Both the position numbers and the translations under genes were made by a program. The notes under the pieces are model-generated. The model was given only the letters and a program-made list of their open reading frames with translations, was not told the DNA's origin and searched no databases. A stretch of DNA of 64,000 bases. Source: Mycobacterium sherrisii (lineage in GTDB: Bacteria > Actinomycetota > Actinomycetes > Mycobacteriales > Mycobacteriaceae). Location: NCBI RefSeq assembly GCF_002102355.1, contig NZ_LQPT01000051.1:1-64000 (forward strand), in the 5' to 3' direction. Each line of letters opens with the position of its first letter. Position 1 is the stretch's first letter. Positions 24,484 to 45,397 of this stretch are shown here, one piece after another.

Positions 24484-25497
24484 TTAGTGCCCCAGGACGT
24501 TGACTCCGAAGCGGAACAGGGCGGGCACCCGCTGACAGGCCGGCACGATGGCACCCCGCGTGGCCCGTGGGGTGCTGGCCAGCACCACGGCCCGGGTGAG
24601 TAGCCGGTAGTTGCGGGTCACCCGGTGCCACTCCTTCTCGTAGGCCGCCGGCGTTTCGTTGACGATGGCGTCCACCGCCGCGCCTGCCTGCTTGACGGCC
24701 AAGCTGACGCCCTCACCGGTCAGCGCATCCTCGTAGCCCGCCGCGTCACCGACCAGCAGCACCCGTCCGGCAACTCGGCGCGAGACCACTTGGCGCAACG
24801 GGCCGCAGCCGCGTGCGTGCCCACGGCCGGCCCCCGCCAGACGCCGGCTCAGCCGCGGGAACCACGCCAGGTCGGGCCGGCCCTGCGACAGGATCGCCAC
24901 CCCCACCAGGTCGGGTTCCACGGGCGTCACGTATGCCTCACCCAACCGCGACCAATAGACCTCGACGAACTCCGACCACGGCGGCACTGTGAAATGCCAA
25001 CGCACGCCGTAGCGTCGCGGCGTCCCGGCGGTCACCTTGATGCCGACGGCGCGCCGGACCACCGAGTGCAGTCCGTCGGCGCCCACCAGGTACCTCGCGC
25101 GCACTCCGGCGGCGGTGACACCGTGTGCGTCCTGCTTCACGTCGGCTACCTTGGCCCGAATCCATTCGGTGTCTTGCTCTTTGGCGCGGGCCTGCATCGC
25201 CGCGTGCAGGGTGGTGCGACGCACCCCGCGGCCCGGCCCGGCGCGAAACAGCGCCTCGGCGCGGCGCTGCTCGCTGACATAGGCGATACCGCGGAACGGC
25301 ATGCCGACCGGATCGACGCCCAGCGAGGTGAGCTCGGCCAGACCGCCGGGCATCAGCCCCTCTCCGCACGCCTTGTCGATGGGATCTGCGCGCGGCTCGA
25401 CCACGATGACCGACAGCCCGTGCCGGCGGGCCTGCAGCGCGGTGGCCAAACCACCGGGGCCGCCGCCCACGGTCAACAGGTCGGCGTCATAGGACAT
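24484..25497 (-). CDS. FAD-dependent oxidoreductase (geranylgeranyl-reductase/hydroxylase-like) of the type III PKS operon
   Basis: A 337-residue flavoprotein. N-terminal FAD fold TVGGGPGGLATALQARRHG; then KACGEGLMPGGLAEL as in the geranylgeranyl reductase group; VGADGLHSVVRRAVGI; and C-terminal RVLLVGDAAGYEDALTGEGVSLA, the second FAD motif. It is third in the minus-strand run after the type III PKS and the methyltransferase-like membrane protein. In Streptomyces phenolic-lipid clusters (srsABC) a flavoprotein in this position hydroxylates the alkylresorcinol to a quinone, which is a reasonable working model here. It corresponds by order and size to Rv1138c. AGGAGGAG precedes the ATG. Confidence 0.82.
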   Translation of the reverse strand: MSYDADLLTVGGGPGGLATALQARRHGLSVIVVEPRADPIDKACGEGLMPGGLAELTSLGVDPVGMPFRGIAYVSEQRRAEALFRAGPGRGVRRTTLHAAMQARAKEQDTEWIRAKVADVKQDAHGVTAAGVRARYLVGADGLHSVVRRAVGIKVTAGTPRRYGVRWHFTVPPWSEFVEVYWSRLGEAYVTPVEPDLVGVAILSQGRPDLAWFPRLSRRLAGAGRGHARGCGPLRQVVSRRVAGRVLLVGDAAGYEDALTGEGVSLAVKQAGAAVDAIVNETPAAYEKEWHRVTRNYRLLTRAVVLASTPRATRGAIVPACQRVPALFRFGVNVLGH

Positions 25498-25548
25498 CAG
25501 CGCCGCTCCTCCTCATCGCTGCGATCTGCATCGTCGACGGCGCGCCGC

Positions 25549-26049
25549 TCATGTGTAACCCAATGCCGAATTCTCCACCCGGATGCGCACACTGAGCAGG
25601 ATCGCGTTGGCGACGGTGAACGTGGCCGCCGTCAGCCAGGCGGTGTGGATCAGCGGTAATGCGAACCCTTCGGCCACCACCGCAACATAGTTCGGGTGGT
25701 GAAGAAACCGGTAGGGCCCCCGCCGCACCAGGGGCGCCTCCGGCAACACGATCACGCGGGTGTTCCACCGCCGGCCCAGCGTGCCGATGCACCACCAGCG
25801 CAGCACCTGGCTCAGCGCCGCGACCGCCAGCATCGGCCAGCCCAGCCACGGCAGGAACGGCCGGTGCAGCGCCAGCGGTTCGACCACACAGCCGACCAGC
25901 AGGGCAGAGTGGATGACGACCATCACCACGTAGTGCGGTCGACCAAACTCCTTGGCGCCCTGGGCAAAAGACCACTGCGCGTTGCGGTTGGACAGCACCA
26001 GTTCGACGATGCGCTCCAGCCCGACCGCCAGGATCAGCAGGTAGTACAT
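25549..26049 (-). CDS. Isoprenylcysteine carboxyl methyltransferase-family membrane protein
   Basis: A 166-residue integral membrane protein with four or five hydrophobic segments: MYYLLILAVGLERIVELVL, VMVVIHSALLVGCVV, GWPMLAVAALSQVLRWWCIG and FTVANAILL. The family signature is the C-terminal RRGPYRFLHHPNYVAVVAEGF, the SAM-binding region of ICMT-like enzymes (BpsB/SrsB types). Such proteins O-methylate polyketide phenols made by the neighbouring type III PKS. The start ATG 26049 lies 20 bases after the PKS stop. Same length and position as Rv1139c by memory. An additional frame upstream of the ATG overlaps the PKS and is not needed. Confidence 0.85.
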   Translation of the reverse strand: MYYLLILAVGLERIVELVLSNRNAQWSFAQGAKEFGRPHYVVMVVIHSALLVGCVVEPLALHRPFLPWLGWPMLAVAALSQVLRWWCIGTLGRRWNTRVIVLPEAPLVRRGPYRFLHHPNYVAVVAEGFALPLIHTAWLTAATFTVANAILLSVRIRVENSALGYT

Positions 26050-26069
26050 GTCTACAGTCTGTACCAGTG

Positions 26070-27167
26070 CTACCACTTCAACAGCACGAGTTCGGAGCAG
26101 AAACCCGGACCCATCGCGATCATCAGGCCGAGCGAGCCCGGCACCGGCGGCTGGGCCAGGTTGGCCCGAAGCACGTCGATAACCGAAACCGATGACAGAT
26201 TTCCGTTGAGCCGCAACGAGTTTCGCGTGTGATCCAGAGCGTCGGCCGGCAACTCCAGTTCTTCTTCGACCGCCTCGATGACCGCGGGACCGCCCGGGTG
26301 GCACACCCACGTCGAGATGTCCGAGGGCGCCAAGCCGTGGTCGGCCAAAAACTTGCGGACGTCGTCACCCAGGTACTGCTTGGCGACGTTGACGACGTCG
26401 GCGGACAACACGATCTTGAAGCCGTCGGTGCCGATGTCCCAGCCCATCACGCCCTGGGTGTCCGGATACATCCGGCTGCGCGTGTCGAGCACCCGCGGGC
26501 CGGTCTCGGTTTCCGAGAAATTGGCGCCCTTGACGACAACCGCGCCCGCGCCGTCGCCGAACAGGCTGGTGGCGACCGTGTTGGCCACCGAATGGTCGTT
26601 ACGTTGAATGGTCAGCGTGCACAGTTCGACCGCCAGCAACACCGCGACGTGGTCGGGGAACGCTCGCAGGTAGTCATGCACCCGCGCGACCCCGGCCGCG
26701 CCGGCAACACATCCCAGACCGAACATCGGGATGCGTTTGACGTCCTGGCGCAGCCCCACTCGGTGCGCCAGCCGTGCCTCCAGCGACGGCACGGCGAGCC
26801 CGGTGACCGTCGTCGAAAACACGATGTCCACCTCTTCGGGCCGGACCTTGGCCTGCTCGAGCGCTGCGCGCAGAGCCCGCTCACCCAATTCCAGAGCGAC
26901 CTCGACGTAGGCTTCGTTCGCCTCGGTGAAACCGCTCAGCTGCTCCATCCGGTCCATCGAGATCGCCAGATGCCGGTGCTCCACGCCGGCCGATAGCGCA
27001 AAGCGCCGGAAGTGTTCCCCCATAACGCCACTGAGCCGGTCGATCAGTTCTTCCTGCGGATGATAGTGCTGCGGAAACTGCACAGACACCGCAGCAATTG
27101 TCGGATCCTCGCTGGCCGTGGTTGTAAAGCCCACGCGCGTGGCATTTCCCCCTGTTTTTTCGTTCAT
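26070..27167 (-). CDS. Type III polyketide synthase
   Basis: A 365-residue chalcone/stilbene-synthase-like enzyme that extends an acyl-CoA starter with malonyl-CoA and cyclises the product into an alkylpyrone or alkylresorcinol. The catalytic triad is Cys153 (MFGLGCVAGAAG), His290 (WVCHPGGPAVIE) and Asn323 (RLNGNLSSVS). FSTTVTGLAVPSLEARL and GDGAGAVVV are also family sequences. Likely uses long-chain acyl starters like other mycobacterial Pks10/11/18 types, but which is not readable. First gene of the operon with the methyltransferase and flavoprotein. ATG 27167 is 81 bp from the divergent SDR gene. Confidence 0.95.
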   Translation of the reverse strand: MNEKTGGNATRVGFTTTASEDPTIAAVSVQFPQHYHPQEELIDRLSGVMGEHFRRFALSAGVEHRHLAISMDRMEQLSGFTEANEAYVEVALELGERALRAALEQAKVRPEEVDIVFSTTVTGLAVPSLEARLAHRVGLRQDVKRIPMFGLGCVAGAAGVARVHDYLRAFPDHVAVLLAVELCTLTIQRNDHSVANTVATSLFGDGAGAVVVKGANFSETETGPRVLDTRSRMYPDTQGVMGWDIGTDGFKIVLSADVVNVAKQYLGDDVRKFLADHGLAPSDISTWVCHPGGPAVIEAVEEELELPADALDHTRNSLRLNGNLSSVSVIDVLRANLAQPPVPGSLGLMIAMGPGFCSELVLLKW

Positions 27168-27168
27168 G

Positions 27169-27209
27169 AACTTAGTTACGGTGGCCTAACTTAGTTGGTT
27201 CAACCCAAC
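27169..27209. promoter_or_regulatory. Repeats in the PKS/SDR divergent promoter
   Basis: AACTTAGTT occurs twice, at 27169-27177 and 27188-27196, 19 bases apart, and a near-perfect inverted repeat GTTGGTT-CA-ACCCAAC spans 27194-27209 (one mismatch). They sit immediately upstream of the PKS start and between the two divergent genes, so a regulator binding here could control both. Confidence 0.5.
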
Positions 27210-27248
27210 CCGGTTTAGGTATGCCTTCCGCGGGATAGGGTCAAATGC

Positions 27249-28397
27249 ATGCGGATTTTGGTGACCGGTGCGACCGGCTATGTGGGCTCCCGACTGGTCA
27301 CGGAACTGCTGGAAAACCACCACCAGGTGGTGGCGGCAAGCCGAAACCCGAAGCAGCTCAAGCGGTTCGGGTGGTTTGACGATGTCGCGCCGGTGCGTCT
27401 GAACGCATCGGATCCGGCGTCGGCGCAGGCGGCGATGGACGCCGCCGACCCCGTCGACGTCCTGTATTACCTGGTCCACGCCATCGGCCAGCCCGACTTC
27501 AGGGATGCCGATCGGACCGCGGCCGCCAATGTCGCCGCGGCTGCCCGCGACGCCGGGGTGCGCCGCATCGTCTACCTGGGCGGGTTCGTGCCCGCCGACG
27601 AGGCACTGTCCGAGCACTTGACCAGCCGCGCCGAGGTCGCCGAGGCGCTGACCATCCCCGAAGGCCCGGAGCTGGTGTGGCTGGGCGCGGCCGTCATCAT
27701 CGGTGCGGGTTCGACGTCGTTCGAGATGATGCGCTACGTCGGCGACCGATTCCCGCTGATCCCCGCCCCGAGCTGGATGGACAACCCGATCGACCCGATC
27801 TCCATCCGCGACGTGCTGCACTATTTGGTGGCCGCCGCGGATCCCGAGCTCGTCCCGCCCGGCGCGTACGACATCGCCGGTCCGGACACCACTACCTACC
27901 GGGACCTGCTCAAGGCGTATGCGCGAGCCTCGGGACGCTGGCACGCCGCGCTGCCGGTCGGTCGCGTCGACACCTCGTTGGCGTCGCTGATCACCGGGCT
28001 CGCCCTGCCGGTGCCGCCCGGCTTGGCCGGCGACCTGGTGGAGTCGCTCGATCATCCGATGCTCGCGTCGGCCAGCGGGCTGCGCGGACGGGTGCCCGAC
28101 CCGCCCGGCGGCCTGCTGGGCGTCGAGGACGCCATCTCGCTGGCCCTGGCGGGTGCGGCGCGGGGCAAGCCGCGGCCGGTCAACGAGCTGGCCGACCCGC
28201 ACGACCTCGCCGACACCGACCCCGCCTGGGCGGGCGGGGACGCGCTGCGGATCCGCCGGCTGGCCAGGGCCATCACCCCGCCCATTGCCCGGCCCACCCT
28301 GAAGCTGGTCAACAATGTCCCGGGCCCGGTCGCCGGAGCCGTGCGCACCGGCCTGGACATTCTGCTCAGCCTGACCCCGAAGGTCCGTCCGGCATGA
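27249..28397 (+). CDS. NAD(P)-binding atypical SDR (NmrA/epimerase-like)
   Basis: A 382-residue extended Rossmann protein. Starts MRILVTGATGYVGSRLVTELL (GxxGxxG motif), then DVLYYLVHAIGQ, RRIVYLGGFVP and VIIGAGSTSFEMMRYVGDR. Its function is not known; family members reduce or sense quinones or epimerise sugars. It is clearly paralogous to the protein at 29113-30453, sharing SFEM, RDVLHYL and PPGG landmarks in the same order, but lacks that protein's C-terminal DUF2867 part. It diverges from the PKS operon and overlaps the CPBP protease gene by ATGA, so the two form an operon. Confidence 0.8.
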   Translation: MRILVTGATGYVGSRLVTELLENHHQVVAASRNPKQLKRFGWFDDVAPVRLNASDPASAQAAMDAADPVDVLYYLVHAIGQPDFRDADRTAAANVAAAARDAGVRRIVYLGGFVPADEALSEHLTSRAEVAEALTIPEGPELVWLGAAVIIGAGSTSFEMMRYVGDRFPLIPAPSWMDNPIDPISIRDVLHYLVAAADPELVPPGAYDIAGPDTTTYRDLLKAYARASGRWHAALPVGRVDTSLASLITGLALPVPPGLAGDLVESLDHPMLASASGLRGRVPDPPGGLLGVEDAISLALAGAARGKPRPVNELADPHDLADTDPAWAGGDALRIRRLARAITPPIARPTLKLVNNVPGPVAGAVRTGLDILLSLTPKVRPA

Positions 28398-29116
28398 GCC
28401 AGCAGGCCAGCCCGTACCACGCCAGTGTGTTCTCCGAGCTGCGTCAGGCCGTCACCAATGTTGCTGTACCACACCATGAACCGCCGTCGCTGGTGCGGCG
28501 GCGCCGCGTCGTGGTCGCGGTCACCTTGGTGGTCGGCGCGGCGGTGCTCGGCTACTCGCTGCGCCGCCCGCCCGGCGAATCGAGCTTCTACTGGCTGACC
28601 CTGGTGCTGGCCGCGGTGTGGGTCGTCGGCGCGTCCTGCTCCGGCCCGCTGCATTTGGGCGGCATCTGCTGGCGTGGCCGCAATCAGCGGCCGGTGATCA
28701 GCGGCACGCTGGTCGGGCTGGGTCTGGGCGGGGTCTTCATCGTCGGCGGACTGTTCGCCCGCGAGATTCCCGCCGTTGCGGCACTGATCAGCCGGGTGCT
28801 GCAATACGCACACCACGGATCGTTCTGGCTGGTCGTGCTGATCACCCTGATCAACGGCGTCGCCGAGGAGATGTTCTTCCGCGGCGCCCTCTACACCGCG
28901 CTGGGGCGGTTCGCCCCGTTGACGATCTCGACCGTGCTGTACCTCGGCGTCACGCTGGCCAGCGGCAACCCGATGCTCGGGTTCGCCGCGCTCATCCTCG
29001 GCACCGTCTGCGCCCTGGAGCGCCGCGCCAGCGGCGGCGTCCTGGCGCCCGTGCTGACCCACTTCTTCTGGGGCTTGATCATGGTGCTGGTGTTGCCGCC
29101 GATGTTCGGCGTTTAG
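28394..29116 (+). CDS. CPBP family intramembrane metalloprotease (CAAX protease-like)
   Basis: A 240-residue membrane protein. After a 40-residue basic N-terminal region there are about six hydrophobic segments. The catalytic motifs of the CPBP (Abi) family are present: EExxxR in LINGVAEEMFFRGALYT, and the His motif in LAPVLTHFFWGLIMVL; the remaining FxxxH element is not obvious. The family includes CAAX prenyl proteases and bacteriocin-immunity proteins; the substrate is unknown. Start ATG 28394 overlaps the stop of the upstream SDR; the 3' end overlaps the convergent DUF2867 gene by four bases. Confidence 0.82.
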   Translation: MSQQASPYHASVFSELRQAVTNVAVPHHEPPSLVRRRRVVVAVTLVVGAAVLGYSLRRPPGESSFYWLTLVLAAVWVVGASCSGPLHLGGICWRGRNQRPVISGTLVGLGLGGVFIVGGLFAREIPAVAALISRVLQYAHHGSFWLVVLITLINGVAEEMFFRGALYTALGRFAPLTISTVLYLGVTLASGNPMLGFAALILGTVCALERRASGGVLAPVLTHFFWGLIMVLVLPPMFGV

Positions 29117-30453
29117 CCGTCCGCCGCCTCGACGACGTTGCGCACCAGGGCCGCCAGCGCGACGGTGTGCAGCGGTCGGGCGGCAAGCCAGTAGAGCCGC
29201 CCGCGTACGCCGGCCGGGACGAAGACCGCCCGCTGCGTGTATCTGCTGCCGCCGCCGTCCCGCGGCGCGACGGTCATTTCCAACCAGGCGGTCCCGCGGG
29301 TGCGGAATCGGGAGCGCAGCCGCAACCAGGTGCCGGGTTCCCGCTCGGCCACGGTCCAGCGGCCGTTGCTAGTCGCGGCGTTTTCGGCTGCGGCCCAAAC
29401 ATCCTCGGGCTTGGCGGCGGTTGCTGCCGTCCGCACGTCGGTGTAGCTGACTTCGCCCGCCCAGGCCGGGTCGCTGGGCAGCGGCTCGGCCGGCTCGGTG
29501 TGCGACGACGCCCAGCTGGCGTCGGGCAACCCGCGCGCCGCCCGATTCAGCGACAGCGCGATCGCTCGCCGGTAGGGGGTGAGGCCGCCCGGCGGCGGCG
29601 CGATGATGGTGTCGACGTCCGAATTGCCCATCACCGCATCGCATTCCAGCGCTTCGATCAGCGGCCGCGCCAAGCCGGACGGGATCGGCGTCACCGTCCC
29701 CACCCACAGGCTGGCGATGGACGGCGTCAGAAACGGCAGCACGAACAGGTAGCGCCGGTGCAGGCCCGCCACGTCGGCGTAGACGCGCATCATGTCGCCG
29801 TACTCCAGCACGTCGGGGCCGCCGATATCCCAGGCCCGCGACGAGGGCACCTGAGCCGTTGCCGCGGCGATTAGGTAGTGGAGCACGTCGCGCACCGCGA
29901 TGGGCTGGATCCGGTTGTGCACCCACTTCGGTGTGGTCATCACCGGCAGCCGGTCGGTCAGGTGGCGGATCATTTCGAACGACGCCGATCCGGACCCGAT
30001 GACCACACCGGCCTGCAGCACGACCGTCTCGATTCCCGACTCGACGAGCGCCTCGCCCACCGCCTTGCGCGACGCCAGATGGGGCGACAGATCCCGGTCC
30101 GGGGGATGCAGCCCGCTCAGGTACACGATCCGCCGGACCCCGGTGCGCTGCGCGGCCGTCACGACGTTGCGGACCGAGCGGCGTTCCTCCTCGGCGAAAT
30201 CCTTCGACGTCCCCATCGAATGGACCAGGTAGTAGACGACATCCATGCCGTCGAAGGCCTCGATGAGAGAGTCGACGTCGCCGAGGTCGCCGCGTGCGAC
30301 CTCCATTTGCTCGCGCCACGGTACTTCCGCCAGCTTGTCCGGCGTGCGGGCCAGCGCTCGCACGCGGTGGCCTTCGTCGAGCAGCCGCGGCACCAGGCGG
30401 GCACCGATGTAACCGGTCGCCCCGGTCACCAGGCAGCGCAGCGGTTCGTCCAT
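29113..30453 (-). CDS. SDR-DUF2867 fusion protein
   Basis: A 446-residue protein. Residues 1-300 are an NmrA-like NAD(P)-binding domain (CLVTGATGYIGARLVPRLLD, VVYYLVHSMG, RIVYLSGLHPP, GSASFEMIRHLTDR), and from about residue 315 a DUF2867 domain follows (YTDVRTAATAAKPEDVWAAA, GTWLRLRSRFRTRGTAWLEM, RGRLYWLAARPLHTVAL). This fusion is common in actinobacteria but uncharacterised. The N-terminal part is a paralogue of the protein at 27249; the two converge on the protease gene. ATG 30453 follows AGGGAGGA. Between it and the enoyl-CoA hydratase (30454-30510) is only spacer. Confidence 0.82.
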   Translation of the reverse strand: MDEPLRCLVTGATGYIGARLVPRLLDEGHRVRALARTPDKLAEVPWREQMEVARGDLGDVDSLIEAFDGMDVVYYLVHSMGTSKDFAEEERRSVRNVVTAAQRTGVRRIVYLSGLHPPDRDLSPHLASRKAVGEALVESGIETVVLQAGVVIGSGSASFEMIRHLTDRLPVMTTPKWVHNRIQPIAVRDVLHYLIAAATAQVPSSRAWDIGGPDVLEYGDMMRVYADVAGLHRRYLFVLPFLTPSIASLWVGTVTPIPSGLARPLIEALECDAVMGNSDVDTIIAPPPGGLTPYRRAIALSLNRAARGLPDASWASSHTEPAEPLPSDPAWAGEVSYTDVRTAATAAKPEDVWAAAENAATSNGRWTVAEREPGTWLRLRSRFRTRGTAWLEMTVAPRDGGGSRYTQRAVFVPAGVRGRLYWLAARPLHTVALAALVRNVVEAADG

Positions 30454-45235: not shown

Positions 45236-45397
45236 GGGTAGCAAACCTTTCTGGACGAGAATTCTGACGCCAGCCACGTTACGCTTGGGCCTAGACGTTC
45301 GACGCCTGCGCATTCGGGGACGGCGCCGTTGAACCATGGGGACGGCCAGCTCGTGGATCACTTGATTGGCCCACAGTTCAGGGAGGCACGAGCCGCC

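What the first reader, a model, noticed from the sequence alone, without database searches (positions are those of the whole stretch)
24484..27210. Type III PKS, ICMT-like methyltransferase and flavoprotein operon: likely alkyl phenol/quinone maker
The gene trio and order equal the Streptomyces srsA-srsB-srsC phenolic-lipid clusters, where the product is an O-methylated alkylresorcinol oxidised to a quinone. Mycobacteria are reported to make polyketide quinones that carry electrons when oxygen is low, so this unit may give this species a lipid quinone. Here the flavoprotein and membrane protein that M. tuberculosis retains as uncharacterised Rv1138c/Rv1139c (from memory) have a clear partner. 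The divergent promoter carries direct and inverted repeats.
Basis: partly seen in the sequence, partly recalled or inferred. Interest (0 to 1): 0.75.

Follow-up and report, generated by a model that had tools for sequence, protein, structure and literature searches.

The report
SigL-controlled polyketide-quinone gene trio
This is a three-gene unit that probably makes a fatty, quinone-type lipid in a mycobacterium; the unit is of a known kind, but its stress-type promoter and the many relatives that have dropped the first gene while keeping the other two suggest how species lacking the full set could still make such lipids.

Summary
The trio is real: type III PKS (26070-27167), ICMT-family methyltransferase (25549-26049) and FAD oxygenase-type flavoprotein (24484-25497), all on the minus strand. 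The PKS keeps the Cys/His/Asn triad and the Trp tied in print to resorcinol formation. Most likely role: alkylresorcinol synthesis, O-methylation and ring oxidation to a polyketide quinone. The kind is known (srs/pkq clusters; MMAR_4313; MAP2642-2644).

(1) The promoter repeats overlie a SigL-type promoter, TGAACC-N16-CGT, 10 nt before the PKS start codon. It is in 67 of 77 loci of this type; 16 is the only enriched spacing. It also precedes a second kind of trio (21 of 31), a PKS-ICMT duo (10 of 12) and pks10-like genes (10 of 23). (2) The PKS was lost about 12 separate times in relatives while ICMT and FAD stayed under purifying selection; 17 of 17 loci without a neighbouring PKS keep the motif. 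(3) M. tuberculosis, reported to have Rv1139c-Rv1138c but no cluster, fits this pattern. So SigL may govern polyketide-quinone synthesis genus-wide, with tailoring enzymes serving PKSs elsewhere. No held paper names both. No chemistry was tested.

The parts
26070..27167 (-). type III polyketide synthase, 365 aa; Cys153, His290, Asn323 triad; Trp243 at the resorcinol-determining position
25549..26049 (-). ICMT-family integral-membrane methyltransferase, 166 aa (probable O-methylation of the phenol)
24484..25497 (-). FAD-binding oxygenase-type flavoprotein, 337 aa (probable ring hydroxylation/oxidation)
27178..27202 (-). SigL-type promoter TGAACC-N16-CGT; 10 nt between CGT and the PKS ATG, so a leaderless or nearly leaderless mRNA is predicted
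27169..27177 (.). AACTTAGTT direct repeat, copy 1 (not shared by relatives)
27188..27196 (.). AACTTAGTT direct repeat, copy 2, inside the promoter spacer
27249..28397 (+). divergent NAD(P)-binding SDR-like gene; frequent neighbour, not claimed as part of the pathway

Best explanation
The operon makes an O-methylated long-chain alkyl-benzoquinone (polyketide quinone or close phenolic lipid). The PKS condenses a long-chain acyl-CoA with malonyl/methylmalonyl-CoA to an alkylresorcinol; the membrane methyltransferase O-methylates it; the flavoprotein hydroxylates the ring, which oxidises to the quinone. Transcription is switched on by the ECF sigma factor SigL. Shown here: genes, order, catalytic and Trp residues, conserved promoter motif, purifying selection, repeated PKS loss. 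Inferred: substrates, products, order of steps, SigL dependence in this species, and any electron-carrier role.
For: Families. Triad in 63 of 63 PKS rows of a hand-picked tree set; Trp at column 243 in 50 of 63, the other 13 (12 Tyr, 1 Phe) being the pks10-like rows (rows were sorted into pks10-like and pks11-like partly by this residue, and the tree then made the pks10-like rows one side of a branch, 99). The Trp of Pks11 (PDB 4jao) is chain residue 230 by my count, the number given for MMAR_2474 in PMC5916927 (passages). A three-gene operon of this make-up is credited with the quinones of Streptomyces MNU77, and its PKS rescues the M. smegmatis pkqA deletion (PMC9927152, passages). Motif in 67 of 77 loci against 21 of 7,700 Markov shuffles; spacing 16 in 67, any other spacing from 10 to 24 in at most 2; group controls. 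In-frame start codon 9-10 nt after CGT in 41 of 50 loci. In the own genome the motif also stands before an Mpt53 homologue (1lu4, 5.2e-74), a TPP enzyme and an ABC ATPase; mpt53, an ilvB-annotated and a lolD-annotated gene are among those induced with sigL in M. avium paratuberculosis, as are MAP2642-2644 (first ratio listed 9.00, 7.93, 4.90; column heads not seen) (PMC2806251, passages). P-Rv1139c and P-pks10 are named as characterised SigL promoters of M. tuberculosis (PMC6372665, passages).
Against: No product data for this trio. Its PKS lies in a different clan from Pks11 and the probable M. smegmatis-type PKS and could differ in product. The window promoter has A, not G, right after CGT; by my register that is position -11, where PMC6372665 found specificity strongest (though it says only three of four known SigL promoters have the G). 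The strict motif is missing in 10 of 77 loci and in 12 of 51 intact loci under a narrower window. The own pks10-like gene has only a degenerate motif. SigL control says nothing direct about low oxygen. The best NCBIfam hit of the flavoprotein is the geranylgeranyl-reductase superfamily, under its cut-off, so hydroxylase chemistry is not assured; no structure model could be made (server busy).
Confidence: 0.7

Rival explanations
1. The ICMT-FAD pair has its own substrate unrelated to type III polyketides; the PKS is an optional extra, which is why it is lost so often.
For: About 12 separate PKS losses with the pair kept, the pair still under purifying selection; genome G015 keeps the pair but no type III PKS was found at E 1e-20 (710 contigs, 99% complete).
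Against: The trio also occurs in Rhizocola, Catellatospora and Mycobacteroides LB1, so it is old; 20 of the 21 genomes whose adjacent PKS was missing or broken keep other type III PKSs; in 17 of 17 loci without a neighbouring PKS the pair keeps a SigL-type motif like those of PKS operons.
Confidence: 0.2
2. The trio makes a methylated phenolic lipid or quinone used in the envelope (biofilm, antibiotic tolerance), not as an electron carrier.
For: The srs cluster is tied to antibiotic resistance in S. griseus (PMC5916927 introduction, passage); SigL is described as regulating polyketide-lipid and membrane-protein genes (PMC9469519, passage); induction of the MAP homologues by a rhodanine agent and in THP-1 cells.
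Against: Chemically similar quinones are reported to carry electrons in M. smegmatis (abstract and passages of PMC9927152 and passages of other later papers; the 2015 paper itself was not held).
Confidence: 0.35
3. The PKS mainly makes alkylpyrones and the tailoring enzymes act on these.
For: MMAR_2470 gave methylated alkylpyrones in vitro (PMC5916927, passages).
Against: W243 is present, as in the resorcinol formers named in PMC5916927 and PMC9927152; the pks10-like rows carry Tyr/Phe (that they are pyrone formers is inferred).
Confidence: 0.12

Closest known systems
pkqA-pkqB-pkqC polyketide-quinone cluster of M. smegmatis (MSMEG_0808 ff.) and Streptomyces MNU77
   Same: PKS, methyltransferase, oxidoreductase in the same order; Trp at the resorcinol position; SigL-type motif before 21 of 31 trios of the type I take to be the M. 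smegmatis one
   Different: PKS in another clan; those trios share only 50-56% (PKS), 57-66% (ICMT) and 49-54% (FAD) identity with the window in 28 genomes; that they are the M. smegmatis type is inferred
MAP2642-MAP2644 of M. avium subsp. paratuberculosis; mmar_4313 cluster of M. marinum
   Same: MAP genes listed as chalcone-synthase-like gene, Rv1139c homologue, Rv1138c homologue in one SigL-linked operon; mmar_4313 called orthologous to the polyketide-quinone cluster (PMC2806251, PMC5916927, passages)
   Different: Not fetched here; MAP2642-2644 is likely the same type as the window by gene content, mmar_4313 not placed; no product reported in what I read
srsA-srsB-srsC of Streptomyces griseus
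   Same: PKS, methyltransferase, hydroxylase operon giving an alkyl-benzoquinone (PMC9927152, passage)
   Different: No srs sequence was compared here
Rv1139c-Rv1138c of M. tuberculosis
   Same: Homologous methyltransferase-oxidoreductase pair; P-Rv1139c is a SigL promoter (PMC2806251, PMC6372665, passages)
   Different: No orthologous cluster reported (PMC5916927, passage); the genome itself was not recognised among those searched here

Membership tests
polyketide-quinone (pkq/srs-type) cluster | type III PKS with intact Cys-His-Asn triad | tested here: met
   C153, H290, N323
polyketide-quinone (pkq/srs-type) cluster | Trp at the resorcinol-determining position | tested here: met
   W243 aligned with Pks11 Trp230 (my count); role from PMC5916927 and PMC9927152 passages
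polyketide-quinone (pkq/srs-type) cluster | adjacent methyltransferase and FAD oxygenase in the same order | tested here: met
   layout in relatives
polyketide-quinone (pkq/srs-type) cluster | PKS orthologous to pkqA | tested here: inconclusive
   window type in another clan than Pks11 and the probable pkqA type; M. smegmatis sequence not identified
polyketide-quinone (pkq/srs-type) cluster | makes methoxy-alkylbenzoquinone | not testable with these tools
   needs mass spectrometry
polyketide-quinone (pkq/srs-type) cluster | product carries electrons at low oxygen | not testable with these tools
   needs respiration assays
SigL regulon | SigL-type promoter at conserved spacing upstream | tested here: met
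   caveat: A instead of G after CGT
SigL regulon | expression depends on SigL in this species | not testable with these tools
   co-induction with sigL reported for the MAP homologues (PMC2806251, passages)

The most novel reading that the evidence does not exclude
SigL is the genus-wide switch for polyketide-quinone synthesis. In many slow growers, M. tuberculosis probably among them, the pathway is split: the PKS gene beside the tailoring pair has been lost again and again, and the pair (Rv1139c-Rv1138c type) now methylates and oxidises resorcinols from PKSs elsewhere (pks11 in the pks10 operon, or a PKS-ICMT duo), held together only by the shared sigma factor.
Probability: 0.45. Interest if true: 0.75.

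Novelty: new member of a known kind. Interest (0 to 1): 0.6.

Why it matters
Polyketide quinones were reported from M. tuberculosis biofilms although that species lacks the cluster (PMC5916927, passage), which leaves the methylating and oxidising enzymes unnamed in what I could read. The PKS losses with retained pair and promoter give candidates for both and one regulator for the whole pathway, and tie two literatures, SigL and polyketide quinones, that no held paper joins (0 papers).

Tried and rejected
Association of PKS loss with the PKS-ICMT duo: Fisher p 0.048 (11 of 20 lost rows against 10 of 37 intact rows), but by independent pairs on the tree the median p is 1; rejected. Which intact rows have the duo was read by hand from the capped list. 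Direct/inverted repeats as a conserved operator: not shared by relatives by eye. M. tuberculosis locus: not recognised by size and identity in the listed rows of genus scans of 198 and 396 genomes and a 61-genome relatives scan, nor among the 79 named loci. The stop reported for the G012 PKS was not seen in the matched frame of my copy, so that PKS is counted as intact. The strict motif has 55 hits in the own genome against 25 for the reversed control, so it is a weak predictor on its own. Of the rows I read eight by eye: three gave the named SigL-like genes; L249 has a 163-aa ORF and L265 a 326-aa ORF downstream that match nothing in the MAP list I saw; L265 and L267 look like tRNA stretches by eye; L276 and L291 gave no clear gene. 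Structure models of the flavoprotein and methyltransferase could not be obtained.

Row choices: the 76 type-A loci (L004-L079, 74 genomes) were picked by hand from the capped list (ICMT about 69% identity or more; left out: G112, G070 and G156, whose neighbouring PKS is only 54-56% alike). The loss tree used 57 rows: of L004-L063 and the window, L012, L026, L039 and L057 were dropped for thin coverage; L064-L079 show none of the flanking genes in the fetched stretch. An earlier quick tree with 61 rows gave 13 changes, at least 10 on supported branches. The PKS tree used 63 hand-picked rows, among them 3 of 31 type-C, 13 of 23 pks10-like and 11 of 20 pks11-like. The 28 rapid-grower-like genomes were picked by hand as having one PKS match. 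L188 is the same place as L083 and was counted once.
Full report
What is there. The window holds a minus-strand operon: type III PKS 26070-27167, ICMT-family methyltransferase 25549-26049, FAD flavoprotein 24484-25497. The PKS has Cys153, His290, Asn323 and Trp243. Its best solved relative is M. tuberculosis Pks11 (PDB 4jao, 1.6e-103). The methyltransferase matches solved ICMT only weakly (E 0.005). The flavoprotein matches FAD_binding_3 in Pfam and, below cut-off, the geranylgeranyl-reductase superfamily in NCBIfam; solved relatives are mostly oxygenases and halogenases, with one reductase near the top. The own genome has two more type III PKSs, the ends of a same-strand run: pks10-like, three large ORFs, pks11-like, with gaps of 12, 17, -1 and 55 nt. 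This run was checked in the own genome only.

Promoter. Upstream of the PKS lies TGAACC-N16-CGT (27178-27202, minus), 10 nt before the ATG. In 77 type-A loci (the window plus L004-L079) a TGAAC[CT]-N16-CGT is found in 67, against 21 of 7,700 Markov shuffles; every other spacing from 10 to 24 is found in 0 to 2 loci. With a narrower window (about 300 nt) and one definition for all groups: intact type-A trios 39 of 51, type-A duos 3 of 4, loci without neighbouring PKS 17 of 17, PKS-ICMT duos (type B) 10 of 12, rapid-grower-like trios (type C) 21 of 31, pks10-like 10 of 23, pks11-like 1 of 20, PKS remnants 0 of 5. Controls in the same call: 0 hits in the stretch inside the gene in any group; other strand 3 type-A and 6 type-B regions, none elsewhere; Markov shuffles 19 of 8,150 over all groups. 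In 41 of 50 intact loci with the motif an in-frame start codon follows CGT by 9 or 10 nt, so leaderless or nearly leaderless mRNA is predicted. Of the remnant loci, L009 keeps the motif 438 nt before ICMT and L045 keeps it at the PKS start; in L004, L031 and L040 it was not found. The own pks10-like gene has only a degenerate motif.

Why SigL. P-sigL, P-pks10 and P-Rv1139c are named as characterised SigL promoters in M. tuberculosis (PMC6372665, passages). In M. avium subsp. paratuberculosis MAP2642-2644 (chalcone-synthase-like, Rv1139c and Rv1138c homologues) were induced with sigL, rslA and mpt53 (PMC2806251, passages), and MAP_2642/2643 rose in THP-1 infection together with mpt53, which that paper assigns to the SigL regulon (PMC9469519, passage). 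In the own genome there are 55 strict hits (reversed control 25). Two are in the window; the second, at 45330, lies within open frames. The other 53 were covered by 52 fetched regions and tabulated; most lie in long stop-free spans. Of eight read closely, three stand 36, 37 and 61 nt before the start of an Mpt53 homologue (1lu4, 5.2e-74), a TPP enzyme and an ABC ATPase; the Mpt53 one also lies within a 471-codon stop-free span. ilvB- and lolD-annotated genes are in the MAP list; that they are the same genes as the TPP enzyme and the ATPase is inferred. In the window promoter the base after CGT is A; it is G in 27, A in 15 and C in 8 of 50 loci, and by my register PMC6372665 reports specificity strongest at that position, for G.

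Repeated loss of the PKS. In nearly all slow-grower-type loci the unit sits at one chromosomal site (divergent SDR upstream, enoyl-CoA hydratase and thiolase downstream). There 16 loci lack the PKS, with a median SDR-ICMT gap of 194 nt in the 15 measured (L012 is on a short contig without a seen SDR). Five more hold remnants: fragments in L004, L009 and L040, a broken frame in L031, and an in-frame gap that takes out the active-site Cys region in L045. L075 has the pair alone with a PKS elsewhere. On a tree of 57 rows from five genes (20 without intact PKS) the PKS must have been lost 12 times whatever the root tried, 11 (13 trees) or 12 (287 trees) in 300 of 1,000 bootstrap trees. The reverse at this site, PKS kept and FAD lost, was seen once (L049), with one truncated FAD (L015); 12 against 1 or 2 gives binomial p 0.003 or 0.013, a test chosen after seeing the data. 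Elsewhere in the genome, four type-A duos lack FAD (L076-L079). In a seven-species clade without the PKS, median dN/dS is 0.14 (ICMT) and 0.149 (FAD); two other pairs without PKS gave 0.211 and 0.262 (ICMT) and 0.10 and 0.141 (FAD); medians of four trio clades run 0.085-0.224 and 0.119-0.16. So the pair is under purifying selection, with one ICMT pair somewhat looser. The trio is taken as the older state because it also occurs in Mycobacteroides LB1, Rhizocola and Catellatospora. Of 21 genomes without an intact neighbouring PKS (G016/L075 not included) 20 keep other type III PKSs at E 1e-20, G015 none. A link between PKS loss and the type-B duo was not supported after correction for descent.

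PKS families. A 63-row tree of hand-picked rows gives two clans: pks10-like, pks11-like and type C in one; types A, B and the outside trios in the other. The quick method was used and long branches were flagged. The resorcinol Trp is present in all groups except pks10-like, a group partly defined by that residue.

Mechanism. Most likely: alkylresorcinol by the PKS, O-methylation by the membrane enzyme, ring hydroxylation and oxidation by the flavoprotein, as proposed with product data for the Streptomyces MNU77 and M. smegmatis clusters (PMC9927152, passages). All chemistry for this locus is inference.

Comparison and novelty. The unit is a new member of a known kind. mmar_4313 was already called orthologous to the polyketide-quinone cluster, and M. 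tuberculosis was said to lack an orthologous cluster while making polyketide quinones, with a homologous PKS implicated (PMC5916927, abstract and passages). Rv1139c was annotated from structure as a membrane methyltransferase (PMC8562490, passage). Eight held papers name Rv1138c or Rv1139c; I saw passages of five, and none of the eight is among the 29 listed (of 30) papers holding polyketide quinone or pkq names. No held paper contains both SigL and polyketide quinone; one holds sigma factor, polyketide quinone and mycobacteri, and its passages concern SigE. The 2015 polyketide-quinone paper was not held and the 2005/2006 SigL papers were not looked up. The idea that SigL governs the pathway and that the pair works for PKSs elsewhere is therefore new to the library searched, not proven absent from print.

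Noticed in passing
L042 (G188), L055 (G148), L128: Repeated copies of the unit side by side in a few genomes (two full trios in L042; a second unit without ICMT in L055; a partial second PKS in L128).
   Followed up: no
L072-L074, L076-L079: Some Mycolicibacter-like genomes carry a type-A PKS-ICMT duo without FAD, in two cases (G073, G173) beside a full trio elsewhere.
   Followed up: partly
L051 (G015): ICMT-FAD pair kept with a SigL-type motif though no type III PKS was found in the genome.
   Followed up: partly
upstream of type-B duo PKS genes: The same motif occurs on the other strand in 6 of 12 regions; a divergent SigL-driven gene is possible.
   Followed up: no
L015/L153 (M. interjectum): FAD gene matches only residues 1-262 and the neighbouring enoyl-CoA hydratase is also cut; deletion or assembly fault.
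   Followed up: no
window 27249-28397 and 29113-30453: Two NAD(P)-binding SDR-like genes flank a putative membrane-protein ORF (label CPBP recalled, not tested) next to the operon; function unknown.
   Followed up: no
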